Assembly (NCBI RefSeq): GCF_000153705.1
Contig: NZ_DS022272.1
Location: 1,867,839 to 1,931,838, forward strand
Direction of reading: 5' to 3'
Source of the DNA: Fulvimarina pelagi HTCC2506
GTDB taxonomy: Bacteria > Pseudomonadota > Alphaproteobacteria > Rhizobiales > Rhizobiaceae
DNA length: 64,000 nucleotides
In this document: positions 20,206 through 25,247 of the stretch, piece by piece
How positions within the stretch are numbered: the stretch's first letter is position 1
Layout: every line of letters begins with the position of its first letter
Notes under the pieces: model-generated
Database searches by the model: none
Told to the model about the DNA's origin: nothing
What the model saw: only the letters and a program-made list of their open reading frames with translations
Position numbers and translations under genes: made by a program

Positions 20206-20666
20206 CGGGGCAATTCCCTGCTGGTCCAAGAAAATGTCGGCACGGCGCGACCTGCCTGTGTCGGCGCATGCGGATCGTCTCGCATGGCGGATCGGCGGCC
20301 CGGCCTGGTTGGAACCGTTATAAACTTCCCATGACAGGTGCATGACGCCTCTTGCAGTCATTCATCACGCACTTATGGACTGCGCCGACATCGTTCCGGC
20401 GACCCTCCGCTCCTTCGTCGCCTCGGCCTCCGCACTTCTCTATCGTCACCCCGGCCTCGCCGCTTGTTCCTCGTCACCCCGGCCTCCGAGCCGGGGTCCA
20501 TTCCTCTGCACGCTCGGCATGTTCGGTGGTCCCAGCGCAACCTTATCGAGGAGGATGGGCCACAGGAATGGATTCCGGCTCGGAGGCCGGAATGACGAGA
20601 ATTTGGGAAGGTGCCGGAATGACGAGAATCTAGAGCAAGTCGCGATCAGGAGTTCGGCATCACCCC
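20206..20666. other. Intergenic region upstream of phoX
   Basis: About 460 bases without a gene. The left half is the phoX leader and promoter region. The right half (from about 20442) is taken up by REP-like palindromes described separately. Short frames here are repeat-derived. Confidence 0.5.
20471..20600. repeat. REP-like palindromic element, head-to-head pair
   Basis: The unit at 20471-20505 (TCGTCACCCCGGCCTCCGAG, then CCGGGGTCCATTCC) recurs as a near-exact inverted copy at 20561-20600. The two arms are separated by about 55 bases. Each unit is itself a small palindrome (CCGGCCTCCGAGCCGG). Partial extra copies lie at about 20443 and 20612. The same family occurs at 21046, 25248 and 56250, always between genes. 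Confidence 0.8.
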
Positions 20667-20954
20667 CTACCACCCCATCCCGCGATAGAGTTCGTACCAT
20701 TCCGGATTGATCGACTCGATCAGATCGATCTTCCACTGCCGCCGCCAGTTCTTGATCGCCTTCTCCCGGCAGATCGCGTCGTGAATATCGAAGTGCTCCT
20801 CGTACCACACGAGGCGGGTGCACCCATACCGGCTGGTGAACCCCAGCGTCAGGCCTTCCTTGTGCTTATAGACCCGGTTCGCGAGATCAGAGGTCACGCC
20901 GGTATAGAGCGTTCCACCCTTCTTGTTCGTTGTGATGTAGACATACCCGGTCAT
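20667..20954 (-). CDS. GIY-YIG nuclease-domain protein
   Basis: Single-domain GIY-YIG protein of 95 residues. The two halves of the signature are YVYITTNKKGGTLYTGVTSD, with the first Tyr motif read as VYI and the second as YTG. They are followed by the conserved Arg (NRVYKHK) and a Glu in ICREKAIKNWRR. Stand-alone members of this size are common next to repeats in alphaproteobacteria and their function is not established. It is flanked on both sides by REP-like repeats. Confidence 0.85.
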   Translation of the reverse strand: MTGYVYITTNKKGGTLYTGVTSDLANRVYKHKEGLTLGFTSRYGCTRLVWYEEHFDIHDAICREKAIKNWRRQWKIDLIESINPEWYELYRGMGW

Positions 20955-21045
20955 GCGCCATGGTTGTGCGATGCACTAAGAAAGAGCAAGACAAGAGTCT
21001 CCCCTCCACTCGCCACCTTCTTCATCTACCGCCGCCCCTCCTCCT

Positions 21046-21120
21046 TCGTCACCCCGGCCTCCGAGCCGGGGTCCATTCCTCTCCCCTTTCGTCACATTCG
21101 GTGGTGCCACCGCCACCCTC
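21046..21120. repeat. REP-like element, second copy
   Basis: The first 37 bases repeat the 20471 unit exactly (TCGTCACCCCGGCCTCCGAG, then CCGGGGTCCATTCCTCT). Similarity continues at 21097-21118 (ATTCGGTGGT followed by a CC-rich stretch) to the sequence following the first copy. The opposite arm is decayed. It lies between the GIY-YIG gene and the restriction gene remnant, 54 bases from the end of the latter. Confidence 0.75.
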
Positions 21121-21173: not shown

Positions 21174-21761
21174 TCACCGCACCACGAAATACTTCCCGTC
21201 CCCCTCCCGCGCCGCGCCCAGAGACGCAAGCAGCGACAGCACCCTCGCCACCCGCGCCTTCCGGTTCGCCGTGTTCCGCCCGTCGAAGGCGGACGCGACG
21301 TCCTCGGGCGCGGCCGGCGCCGGGGCCTTGCCCAGCATGTCGCGGATGAGGCGGATCTGGTCGTCGCCGGTGGTGGGCCATTTCGGGCGGCCGGCGCTGG
21401 CGGCGATGGGAACGGCGATGTCGAGATCGGCCTGTTCGTCCTCGGCAGGTTTCGGGGCTTTCGCGCCGAGCTTGGGGATCTGGTAGTCCGGCCGCAGCCA
21501 GCGCACATGGCCCTTGGCTTCCTCGGCCTGCCGCTCGACATTAAGCGCGACGAGGCGGGCGAGGAGTTCCTCCTCGGCGGCCTCCTGATCCTCCGATTTG
21601 AGGGAAGACGGCAGGGTCGCGCCGGGCCGCCCGACGATGCGTGTTCCCAGATCCTCCCAGCCATAGGCTTCGAAGGCGAGACGGTCGATCTCGTCGTGCA
21701 TGTCCTTCAACACGGAGACGAGCCCCGCCTCGTGGATGTCGCGCTCCTTTTCTTTAATCGC
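21174..21761 (-). pseudogene. C-terminal remnant of an MmeI-like restriction-modification enzyme
   Basis: The open frame runs from about 21818 to the stop at 21174. The recognisable part begins near DIHEAGLVSVLKDMHDEIDR and continues with LAFEAYGWEDLG, the C-terminal domain signature of MmeI-type enzymes. A typical tail follows: ARLVALNVERQAEE, RWLRPDYQIP and KARVARVLSLLASLG. There is no credible start; the first usable codon is GTG at 21713. It is G+C-rich like the N-terminal part at 23190-25091 and same-strand. The A+T-rich orphan gene between them separates the two pieces of what was one gene. Confidence 0.85.
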
Positions 21762-21811
21762 TGATAAATCTTTTACTATGGCTGAGCTGTGGAGCTTCGA
21801 TCCTCGTAATC

Positions 21812-23188
21812 TCAGCGGTCACGATTGATGGGGCGGCCGTAATCTGTCGACTTATTCTCTAAATAGTCCGGCGTCACAGAAGGCTCCGACCATCGGTTAT
21901 CTTTGTGTTTTAAGATTGATTTTGTTGCCTTCTCGAATAAGGTACCGAGGCGCTCGGTGTTTATCATATCCGTTGCCATCGATCTATACATTCGGCCGAA
22001 ATGTCTGTTTCTATAGTTGGCAAACAGCGACCCAAGACTTTTATTGAAACTGACGGTTGGCCCTGCAAAGCCAACGGCCAGACCCATGCCTGCGCTGCTT
22101 TTATCCACGGAATTTGTTTTCTCTAGCAAAGCTTTCAAAGCTTCATTCAAACCTTTGTATATCGAATTGATTTCTGTATATTTTTCTAGACCCTCGAGAT
22201 GCTGAAGGTTGCTGAGAATGTTCCTACAATTGACAAATTCCGAGCGTTCTCGTTGCTCATATGCTGCATCGATAGCTTCAGCAGGACTTTCACATATTGA
22301 GAGAAAGTACGAGGTCATGAAAGGCAATCGTAGAGCGAATTGCGACATCCCTGACGGTTTAAGAATGCTTGACACGCAGTCGCTGGCGCTATCATTGAGA
22401 TTACTAATCAAGCCTCGTATATCGGCGCCATCTCCGGCCAGCATAACGCCTTCGCAAAACGTATCACGCAATGGCGATAGGCGTGCGATACCACCTAGAT
22501 GTCGAGCGCATTCGTTGTAGAAAAAAGAGCGCTCTGCGCACCAGCCAAATCCAAATATTACTTTTTCTAGAGTGTCTCTGTGGCCCATACCTTTGAAATT
22601 TGGATTATTTTTTGATATTTCGTGTATCAAACTCTTCACGTCGCCAACTTCTGAGCCGTCGAGAAGAATTTTTGGCGCGGTGATCGCCCTGCCAGATCGA
22701 TCTGCATCCGCGTTTTCATTGCCGAAAGATGCAGATACGCCGCTTTCGTAGTTAATATTATTGCGATCTCTCACTAAGTAGCTCAGAGTGAGATACTCAC
22801 TAGAGGTAAATACATCCCATCGAACCTGGGGATGGACTTTGAGTGCCTCAAAGAAATATACGGCATCCCCAACTGGCTTAGCGTCTTTAATATCAAATAT
22901 TAAGCTTTCAGCGTACTTACTAGCCTCTTTTGATATATCATCGTAGGGAACGTCATATTTAGAAATCATATTGATATAAGGAAAAGATTTATGTCTTGAA
23001 TCTCGGTGATAGCCTATGTAATCATCAATTGCGTGGATCTTCTCGCTAAAGACAATAGAATTCAACAGTCTTTCAAGGCAGCAAATATCGTTTTCAGCAT
23101 TTGCTGTATTTAGAGTTTTAGAATGTCCTAATAATCGCTGCACGCCGCTCAATGTAGCGTTATCAATAATTACATCACTTCTGTCCAT
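21812..23188 (-). CDS. Orphan A+T-rich gene inserted in the restriction gene
   Basis: A protein of 458 residues that I do not recognise. It has no signal peptide, no transmembrane segment and no nucleotide-binding or nuclease motif that I can see. It looks soluble and mostly helical; the segment GFGWCAERSFFYNECARHLG and the Gly-rich GMGLAVGFAGPTVSF stand out. Base composition is strikingly A+T-rich compared with both neighbours; the 60 bases from 22921 hold only 18 G or C. The ATG at 23188 follows the stop of the upstream restriction fragment by one base (TAACATG) and has an AGGAA site inside that fragment. A TTG at 23206 would be the alternative. Codon use and composition indicate horizontal acquisition. 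Confidence 0.75.
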   Translation of the reverse strand: MDRSDVIIDNATLSGVQRLLGHSKTLNTANAENDICCLERLLNSIVFSEKIHAIDDYIGYHRDSRHKSFPYINMISKYDVPYDDISKEASKYAESLIFDIKDAKPVGDAVYFFEALKVHPQVRWDVFTSSEYLTLSYLVRDRNNINYESGVSASFGNENADADRSGRAITAPKILLDGSEVGDVKSLIHEISKNNPNFKGMGHRDTLEKVIFGFGWCAERSFFYNECARHLGGIARLSPLRDTFCEGVMLAGDGADIRGLISNLNDSASDCVSSILKPSGMSQFALRLPFMTSYFLSICESPAEAIDAAYEQRERSEFVNCRNILSNLQHLEGLEKYTEINSIYKGLNEALKALLEKTNSVDKSSAGMGLAVGFAGPTVSFNKSLGSLFANYRNRHFGRMYRSMATDMINTERLGTLFEKATKSILKHKDNRWSEPSVTPDYLENKSTDYGRPINRDR

Positions 23189-23189
23189 G

Positions 23190-25091
23190 TTATTGATTCC
23201 TGTCAAAAATTGAATAGTGCATCTGATCAGTGATTTTTCCTAGCCGCGCTTTCCAGACGGCTTCGGCATAACCGTCGCCGAGTTCGGCCCTTAAATCCTT
23301 GCCGCCGATGAAGGGCGGATTGCCGACGACGAACTCCGCCTCCGGCCATTCGGCGGGTTTCGGGTTTATGTAGGTCAACACCTCCACCACCGCCTCGCCG
23401 CCCGGCACCTCCTCGCCGGTGACCGGATGGCGCTTCATGGTGACGCCGTCCCAGCGGGTGAGCGGCTTGCCGCTGGCGTCGCGGGCGATCTCCGTGCCGT
23501 CATAGGCGAGGATCGCATCCTGCTGGCGGATCGTGCCATAGGCGTGCAGCACCGGCTCGGTGATCGCCGACAGCCCGTTCGTCTTCAGCTGCCATTTGAT
23601 GAAGCCGATCCACAGGACGAGATCGGCGATGGCGACGGCGCGGGGGTTGATTTCGGGGCCGTAGAACTGACGCGGGCCCACCGTCTCGCCTTCCATGGCA
23701 AAGCGCGGGGCGTCCTCGCCCAGCTCGTCCAGCGCCTCCAGCACCTCGCCTTCCAGCCGCTTCATCAGCTCCAGCGCCACATAGAGGAAGTTGCCGGTAC
23801 CGCAGGCGGGATCGAGCACGCGGGTGGTGCAGAGGGTGTGGTGGAACGCCTTCACCTTGGCGATCGCGGCCGCGTCCTTGTTCTGGTCGTGGAGGTCCTT
23901 CACCTCCGCCTTCACCTGGTCCCAGTCGTCGCGCAGGGGCTCGATGATGGTGGGGACGACGAGCCGCTCCACATAGGCGCGGGGCGTATAATGCGCGCCG
24001 AGCTTGGAACGTTCGCGCGAATTGAGCGCGCGTTCCAGCAGCGTGCCGAAGATGTCGGGCTCCACCTCGCGCCAGTCGCGATTGGCCGCGATGAAAAGCT
24101 CCGTGATGCCGTCGCCATCGAGCGGCAGGGCCTTGGCGGACTTGAAGAGCGAGCCGTTGAAGCGCTTCAGGCTCGCCATCATGCGCGGCTCGTAGCCGCC
24201 GGAATCCATCACGGTCCAGAGATGTTCGAGCGCGGGCACGAATTGCCGGGGTTTCTCGCGCAGCTCTTCGAGCAGGGTTTCGAAGGCGTGCTTGGGGATC
24301 AGCTCCACATCCTCGGCGAACATGGTGAAGAGGCAGCGCATGAGAAATTCGGCGACGTCCTTCGGATCGTGCTTGCCTTCGAGGCGCTTGGCGATGCGGG
24401 CGAGCCGCTCGGCGATGTCGCGGGTGACCTCGGCGCTCTTCTTCGCCGGATCGAGCGAGTGCGGATCGAGCCAGATGGCCGCGAGGCGCTGCTGAATGGC
24501 CTCGTCTCGCAGGTCGTCCATGGTGATGCGGTAGGAGCGGCGATCGGGGAAGTGGGCGTAGTTCTTGCCCTGGCCGGAGAAGTCCGCGAAGACCTCGATG
24601 ACGTTGCCGACGTCGACCACGAGGATGAAGGGCGGGTAGCCGTGGGAGACCGGCAGGGAGCGGGCGTAGTTCTCCGCCTGCCGCCGGGCCTCCACCATCA
24701 CCTCGTCCCAGCGCCGCCCGCCGCGCCTGGCATGCCCCGGTTTCATCTGCCCGGCGTCCTCTCCGAGGAGCGCGAGCTGTTCGGCGCTTTTCTTCCGGCT
24801 CTGGCGGTTGGCGCTCTGCTTGGCCTCGAGAATGGAAGAGCCGCGCCTGTAGCAATCGATCCGGCCGGGCGTCGACGAACCGTCCGGATGCTTGAAGTCC
24901 ACCCGCCGCTCGAAGGCATAGTCGTTTCGCGCGTTCTCCTCCGTCGCGAAATCGGGCTGCGGCAGGCCGAGCGCATCGGTGAGGCGCATGACGAAAGGCT
25001 GCGCATTCGCCATCTCCGCCCCGCCCGATCGCGTGACCTCCGCGATGAGGCGATCGAGCTTTTCGGGATCGGCGGCGGGCAGAGACGTCAT
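23190..25091 (-). CDS. MmeI-like type IIL/IIG restriction-modification enzyme, truncated before target recognition
   Basis: N-terminal part of a fused restriction-methyltransferase, 633 residues from the ATG at 25091. In order it shows a nuclease motif, GRIDCYRRGSSILEAKQ (Asp79, Glu89, Lys91, the D-x9-ExK pattern of MmeI). A helical region follows, then methyltransferase motif I LDPACGTGNFLY at about residue 425, and motif IV NPPF at 591-594. After WKAR the sequence leaves the family and ends in a 17-residue unrelated tail. Full-length enzymes continue through a target-recognition domain and a C-terminal domain; the latter survives at 21174. A complete nuclease and methylase core without target recognition is probably inactive or altered. 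No good ribosome site is seen; ATG 25109 is an alternative start. Confidence 0.85.
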   Translation of the reverse strand: MTSLPAADPEKLDRLIAEVTRSGGAEMANAQPFVMRLTDALGLPQPDFATEENARNDYAFERRVDFKHPDGSSTPGRIDCYRRGSSILEAKQSANRQSRKKSAEQLALLGEDAGQMKPGHARRGGRRWDEVMVEARRQAENYARSLPVSHGYPPFILVVDVGNVIEVFADFSGQGKNYAHFPDRRSYRITMDDLRDEAIQQRLAAIWLDPHSLDPAKKSAEVTRDIAERLARIAKRLEGKHDPKDVAEFLMRCLFTMFAEDVELIPKHAFETLLEELREKPRQFVPALEHLWTVMDSGGYEPRMMASLKRFNGSLFKSAKALPLDGDGITELFIAANRDWREVEPDIFGTLLERALNSRERSKLGAHYTPRAYVERLVVPTIIEPLRDDWDQVKAEVKDLHDQNKDAAAIAKVKAFHHTLCTTRVLDPACGTGNFLYVALELMKRLEGEVLEALDELGEDAPRFAMEGETVGPRQFYGPEINPRAVAIADLVLWIGFIKWQLKTNGLSAITEPVLHAYGTIRQQDAILAYDGTEIARDASGKPLTRWDGVTMKRHPVTGEEVPGGEAVVEVLTYINPKPAEWPEAEFVVGNPPFIGGKDLRAELGDGYAEAVWKARLGKITDQMHYSIFDRNQ

Positions 25092-25247
25092 GCGGCGTGA
25101 ATCAACCATGCGATGCGTTTTGATCGTTCTGCCATGGATATCGATGCTTGAGTAGGGTTGGGAGACGACAGACGACGACGCACCTCTGACGTCATTACGG
25201 TCTCGCCTGCGCCCGCATTACCAAGATGCTCCGCCCAAACCGTCCTC

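What the first reader, a model, noticed from the sequence alone, without database searches (positions are those of the whole stretch)
21174..25091. MmeI-like restriction enzyme split by replacement of its target-recognition domain
The N-terminal nuclease and methyltransferase core (23190-25091) and the C-terminal domain (21174-21761) belong to one family and strand. Between them the expected target-recognition region is gone, and about 1.5 kb of A+T-rich DNA with one gene takes its place. Both junctions are sharp: family sequence stops after WKAR near 23238 and resumes near 21750. No IS ends, target duplication or transposase are visible. This looks like homologous or illegitimate replacement of the most variable module of a restriction gene by foreign cargo.
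Basis: partly seen in the sequence, partly recalled or inferred. Interest (0 to 1): 0.72.

Follow-up and report, generated by a model that had tools for sequence, protein, structure and literature searches.

The report
Restriction gene core swapped for foreign gene
In this bacterium the middle of a DNA-cutting antiviral enzyme gene has been lost and a complete foreign gene from an unnamed, probably nuclease-like family stands in its place; the enzyme is almost certainly dead, and the incoming gene may itself be an uncharacterised antiviral gene.

Summary
Against an 80%-identical intact MmeI-like gene from the same family of bacteria, family DNA runs to window 23243 and resumes at 21749. About 408 codons are missing: the last third of the methyltransferase, the whole target-recognition domain and the start of the C-terminal bundle, so more than the TRD alone. 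In their place lies 1.49 kb of A+T-rich DNA (GC3 43% against 88% next door) carrying one complete gene (23188-21812). Over 35 homologues in the family are uninterrupted; two others have lost their middle by plain deletion.

The cargo is the most divergent member of a rare, unannotated family (14 alphaproteobacterial copies aligned; PHROG 13435, function unknown). It is always a lone gene, usually A+T-rich, with no conserved neighbours. At least four other copies lie within 10 kb of genes matching known or candidate defence systems. The structure prediction is weak, but its best four structural matches are all PIN/VapC nucleases, and acids at plausible catalytic positions are invariant.

Best reading: an illegitimate replacement killed a Type IIL enzyme and installed a candidate lone PIN-like defence gene in its place. 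The PIN and defence roles are inferred, not shown.

The parts
23243..25109 (-). N-terminal remnant of an MmeI-like Type IIL restriction-modification gene: nuclease (RID...EAK, residues 83-97), helical spacer, and methyltransferase up to 22 codons past NPPF
   Evidence: Pfam MmeI_N, MmeI_hel, partial MmeI_Mtase; 80% identity to intact G880 gene over residues 10-623
23190..23242 (-). foreign in-frame tail (LGKITDQMHYSIFDRNQ, stop) that ends the remnant 1 nt before the cargo start; holds AGGA 9 nt before the cargo ATG
   Evidence: divergence from L089 begins at 23242; sequence
21812..23188 (-). complete cargo gene, 458 aa, family of PHROG 13435, PIN-like N-terminal region
   Evidence: aligns over its full length, first to last residue, with relatives; phrog_13435 E 3e-40; PIN/VapC as top structural matches
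21750..21811 (-). A+T-rich spacer after the cargo stop; no family sequence can be claimed here
21174..21749 (-). C-terminal remnant of the same MmeI-like gene (part of the C-terminal region; TRD absent)
   Evidence: alignment with 13 intact homologues
23245..23250 (.). AGCGCG at the 5' junction, shared with the 3' junction
21740..21745 (.). AGCGCG at the 3' junction; also native at both places in L089

Best explanation
An MmeI-like Type IIL restriction-modification gene lost about 1.22 kb of its middle and gained about 1.49 kb of foreign DNA in the same place by illegitimate (probably microhomology-assisted) replacement, without a visible mobile element. Shown: exact replacement, intact cargo gene, loss of the methyltransferase end and TRD. 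Inferred: the restriction enzyme is dead, because both methylation and cleavage by this family depend on the lost recognition domain; the cargo uses its own ribosome site and is probably transcribed from the old restriction gene's promoter. The cargo is a lone accessory gene that spreads horizontally in Alphaproteobacteria; it most likely encodes a PIN-like RNase with a long insertion and a C-terminal helical domain, acting in phage defence, so that one defence gene was exchanged for another. The PIN and defence steps are inferences.
For: Junctions resolved against L089 and 13 intact homologues; 35+ uninterrupted genes in the family. Cargo complete at both ends and compositionally foreign: GC 0.43, GC3 0.43 against 0.88. 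Shared AGCGCG at both breakpoints, 3% by chance. Cargo relatives: 13 in genome contigs, all alphaproteobacterial, lone, with no shared neighbour family apart from the cargo itself and one loose four-member cluster; a site without it in the sister genome G1273. Defence genes near it: RmrA and DRT UG13b (L037), PDC-S06 (L048), PD-T4-6-type kinase (L044), PDC-S39 (L043). PIN: the top four structural matches, Z 7.5, 6.8, 6.0, 6.0, are all PIN/VapC proteins, next unrelated row 5.0; D9, E39, E219, D242 invariant in every family member that covers them.
Against: The structure models are poor (mean pLDDT 49 and 60), Foldseek alone gave no significant match for the N-domain model, and Z below 8 can be chance. 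Two of the four acids (E219, D242) are not acidic in the distant Pseudomonas relative. Neighbouring defence genes were looked for in selected neighbours, without a control set. No promoter stands out. The 6-base microhomology is weak evidence.
Confidence: 0.5

Rival explanations
1. Two-step decay: the restriction gene first lost its middle by an internal deletion, and the cargo later landed in the dead gene by an ordinary, now unrecognisable insertion with a 6-base target duplication (AGCGCG).
For: Two other homologues in the family have lost the same region by plain deletion: G024 (in frame) and G036. AGCGCG flanks the insert as a direct repeat. A near-symmetric AATCRCTGAT inverted repeat lies 9-11 nt inside both ends.
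Against: The inverted repeat is not significant (p 0.37) and no other cargo copy shows it. AGCGCG is native at both places in L089, and four further native bases (AAGG) are retained before the 3' copy, which a duplication at one site would not give.
Confidence: 0.3
2. The cargo is a phage- or IS-borne passenger with no defence role; its position in a restriction gene is only a tolerated landing place.
For: The family is filed as PHROG 13435 of unknown function; in G1183 the cargo sits in a 2.36 kb segment that ends exactly at an IS4/5-type transposase fragment and is absent from G1273; transposase- or recombinase-like genes lie next to other copies (read by eye).
Against: The protein is conserved end to end in many genera with invariant acidic residues, so it seems kept for a function; no copy was found in 50,697 phage records or 2.9 million viral contigs at the sensitivities used.
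Confidence: 0.35
3. The remnant plus cargo is a working new arrangement: the truncated nuclease-spacer protein is retained and coupled to the cargo, forming a new two-gene system.
For: The N remnant is fully open for 639 codons and its stop lies one base before the cargo ATG; unique amino-acid changes in the remnant are no more numerous than in the intact G880 gene (22 against 20); G024 also keeps nuclease and C-terminal parts in one 574-codon frame.
Against: No second case of this pairing; cargo relatives occur without any MmeI part; equal rates may only mean the event is recent.
Confidence: 0.07
4. Assembly artefact joining separate loci.
For: No reads were available.
Against: The genome is 99% complete in 4 contigs; the gene fragments are collinear and co-oriented, and the foreign segment carries one complete gene and nothing else.
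Confidence: 0.03

Closest known systems
MmeI / Type IIL restriction-modification enzymes (Pfam MmeI_N, MmeI_hel, MmeI_Mtase, MmeI_TRD)
   Same: Domain order and sequence of both remnants; closest intact relative 80% identical over the N part
   Different: Methyltransferase end, TRD and start of the C-terminal bundle are gone and a foreign gene stands there. Known diversification of these enzymes changes the TRD and keeps the reading frame
PHROG 13435 (phage protein family, function unknown)
   Same: Cargo matches profile positions 4-334 of 472 at 3e-40; relatives match nearly full length
   Different: No function assigned; this copy is chromosomal and inside a restriction gene
PIN-domain nucleases (VapC type)
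   Same: Predicted strand-helix order, an IDN acid at the end of the first strand, invariant acids at four plausible positions, top structural matches
   Different: 458 aa with a ~120-residue insertion and a helical C-terminal half; no antitoxin partner seen; no sequence match to any Pfam PIN model
Accessory nucleases linked to restriction loci, such as PrrC in Type I loci (from general knowledge, not tested)
   Same: A candidate nuclease gene sits within a restriction-modification locus
   Different: PrrC is a guest beside a working system; here the host enzyme is destroyed

Membership tests
MmeI-like Type IIL enzyme (functional) | N-terminal PD-(D/E)XK nuclease with D...EXK | tested here: met
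   RID and EAK kept at residues 83-97; residues as described for MmeI in PMC4833311
MmeI-like Type IIL enzyme (functional) | Complete gamma-class N6-adenine methyltransferase domain | tested here: not met
   Motif I and NPPF kept, but the domain stops 22 codons after NPPF
MmeI-like Type IIL enzyme (functional) | Target recognition domain | tested here: not met
   Absent; present in the intact L023 protein (7.2e-6) and in the intact genes aligned
MmeI-like Type IIL enzyme (functional) | C-terminal helical region in the same reading frame | tested here: not met
   Present only as a separate open stretch 21749-21174
PHROG 13435 | Profile match above chance over most of the protein | tested here: met
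   3.1e-40 for the window copy, residues 6-332; relatives to residue 444
PIN-domain nuclease | PIN fold | tested here: inconclusive
   Top four VIA matches are PIN/VapC, Z 6.0-7.5, but model pLDDT is 49; the N-domain model's best match has Z 3.8, second row a VapC at 3.3
PIN-domain nuclease | Three to four conserved acids of the active site | tested here: inconclusive
   D9, E39, E219, D242 invariant in the alphaproteobacterial family; E219 and D242 not acidic in the Pseudomonas relative
PIN-domain nuclease | Metal-dependent RNase activity | not testable with these tools
   needs purified protein
Insertion sequence or transposon | Transposase, terminal inverted repeats, target duplication | tested here: not met
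   One ORF only, no transposase family match; inverted repeat not significant, 6-base repeat ambiguous
Known defence system catalogued in PADLOC | Match of the cargo to a PADLOC model | tested here: not met
   No match for the window, L033 or L034 copies; weak Csn2 0.017 for L035

The most novel reading that the evidence does not exclude
The cargo family is an undescribed single-gene anti-phage system built on a PIN-like nuclease with a large insertion, spread as a lone gene through Alphaproteobacteria, and here it replaced the core of a restriction enzyme and took over its promoter.
Probability: 0.3. Interest if true: 0.6.

Novelty: new variant of a known kind. Interest (0 to 1): 0.4.

Why it matters
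It documents to within a few bases how a bifunctional restriction gene can be retired by replacement of its core with a complete foreign gene, with no mobile element left behind. It also singles out an unannotated, easily tested protein family that is conserved across many genera, sits near defence genes in several of them, and may be a lone PIN-like defence nuclease.

Tried and rejected
Normal multi-gene arrangement: rejected, no other MmeI-like gene read here has the cargo and no cargo relative lies in an MmeI-like gene. IS or transposon: no transposase, no significant ends. AATCRCTGAT inverted repeat near both ends: seemed promising because of its position, but not significant and not seen at other copies. 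Conserved flanking DNA between cargo copies: none by blastn of 2 kb flanks beyond short matches. Cargo in phage records and viral contigs: none found. Plasmids: only a broken, 22-27% identical relative on P. aeruginosa megaplasmids. Pfam and NCBIfam for the cargo: no match. Profile search of solved structures by sequence: nothing convincing. Foldseek with the N-domain model: nothing significant. Empty-site comparisons around the G566 and G066 copies were not informative, because flanks were not syntenic or only one flank was conserved. The site between DUF839 and pnp differs in the two same-genus genomes, so the ancestral locus could not be read there. Literature on this kind of replacement: nothing specific found in four searches.

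Full report
Observation. The minus-strand ORF 25109-23190 is the N-terminal part of an MmeI-like Type IIL enzyme (Pfam MmeI_N 7.7e-24, MmeI_hel 3.4e-18, MmeI_Mtase 1.4e-19 over profile positions 8-154 of 259; PADLOC Type IIG model 7e-253). The matching C-terminal part is open on the same strand from 21749 to 21174. Between them composition falls from GC 0.66-0.69 to 0.43, and third-position GC from 0.88 to 0.43.

Junctions. A search of 298 genomes of the same bacterial family found 53 with a strong match, of which more than 35 have one uninterrupted frame of 1000 codons or more; the closest, in G880, is 80% identical. Aligned with it and twelve other intact genes, the window's DNA is identical up to ...GTCTGGAAAGCGCGGC (ending at 23243) and again from AAGGAGCGCGACAT (starting at 21749). 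The lost stretch corresponds to about 408 codons of the G880 gene. Using the domain limits published for MmeI (nuclease 1-155, spacer 156-300, methyltransferase 301-620, TRD 621-825, C-terminal bundle 826-919; PMC4833311) and the alignment of the G880 protein with MmeI (5hr4), the loss runs from about MmeI residue 505 into the C-terminal bundle. So the catalytic motifs I and IV remain, but the end of the methyltransferase, the whole TRD and the start of the bundle are gone. Because MmeI-type cleavage and methylation share that TRD, the remnant cannot be expected to work as a restriction-modification enzyme (inference from the published mechanism).

How it happened. The insert holds one gene and no recognised transposase. 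An inverted repeat near the two ends (AATCRCTGAT) is not significant (p 0.37). The word AGCGCG stands at both junctions; in the G880 gene it is native at both places, and random pairs of breakpoints in such genes share a 6-base word in about 3% of cases. I favour one illegitimate replacement helped by microhomology over deletion followed by insertion with target duplication, because four further native bases (AAGG) are kept on the 3' side. Loss of the middle is a recurrent fate in this family: G024 has lost methyltransferase and TRD in frame (a 574-codon frame joins nuclease and bundle) and G036 has lost a similar block, both without cargo. Amino-acid changes unique to the window's N remnant (22) match those unique to the intact G880 gene (20), and no frame is broken, so the event looks recent, or the remnant is still used.

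The cargo. Its likely start is ATG 23188, one base after the stop that ends the N remnant, with AGGA nine bases upstream; the alignment with relatives begins there and ends at the last residues, so the gene is complete. It has no Pfam or NCBIfam match but matches PHROG 13435, of unknown function. Thirteen relatives were found in 84,980 genomes, all in Alphaproteobacteria (Methylorubrum, Shimia, Rhizobium, Bradyrhizobium, Tagaea, Mesorhizobium, Aureimonas and others), plus further copies by whole-genome search and a distant, interrupted one on P. aeruginosa megaplasmids. The window's copy is the most divergent (40% mean identity; the others average 59% among themselves). The gene is always alone: no neighbour family is shared apart from one loose four-member cluster, and in most copies it is far poorer in G+C than its surroundings. 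In one genus a 2.36 kb segment that contains it, and ends exactly at an IS4/5-type transposase fragment, is missing from a sister genome. So it travels, apparently as a passenger, with different neighbours each time.

Function. In at least four of the other loci, genes within 10 kb match known or candidate defence systems: RmrA and a UG13b reverse transcriptase (L037), PDC-S06 (L048), a PD-T4-6-type kinase (L044), PDC-S39 (L043); a HEPN protein and a PIN_12 protein lie near two copies. These neighbours were chosen by eye and there is no control set. AlphaFold2 with the few sequences allowed gave a weak model (pLDDT 49), yet the four best structural matches were all PIN/VapC proteins (Z 7.5, 6.8, 6.0, 6.0; next row 5.0), and the N-domain model repeats the strand-helix-helix-strand-helix-strand-helix order with pLDDT near 75 over residues 1-80. 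The residues D9, E39, E219 and D242, at places where a PIN active site would have its acids (my placement), are invariant in all family members that cover them; in the Pseudomonas relative E219 and D242 are replaced. I therefore hold a PIN-like nuclease as the most likely biochemistry (about 0.5) and phage defence as the most likely role (about 0.5), both unproven.

Verdict. As an event it is a well-resolved case of restriction-gene decay by replacement. The more valuable outcome is the cargo family, which is undescribed, conserved, mobile and cheap to test.

Noticed in passing
window 20458-21117: A small GIY-YIG gene (20667-20954, minus) lies between two direct 85-nt copies (82% identical) of a repeat with core CGTCACCCCGGCCTCCGAGCCGGGGTCCATTCC, with an inverted copy at 20561-20599; only four close copies of the core exist in the genome and three are here.
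   Followed up: partly
L086 4331-5983 (minus): An MmeI homologue in G024 has lost methyltransferase and TRD in frame, leaving a 574-codon open frame that joins the nuclease part directly to the C-terminal bundle.
   Followed up: partly
L087 3478-5230 (minus): A second homologue, in G036, has lost about 560 codons of its middle by deletion, out of frame.
   Followed up: partly
L022 1149-9014: On P. aeruginosa megaplasmids a distant cargo relative is split by a reverse-transcriptase gene and transposase-like genes and lies 3' of a DEAD/DEAH helicase gene.
   Followed up: no
L114 2988-3375: A ~390-bp sequence at the exact end of the cargo-bearing segment in G1183 is repeated elsewhere in the same genus and encodes the start of an IS4/5-type transposase.
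   Followed up: partly
L091 and L094, MmeI-like genes: Two intact homologues carry extra in-frame stretches of about 50-80 codons just before the C-terminal region, close to the window's 3' junction.
   Followed up: no
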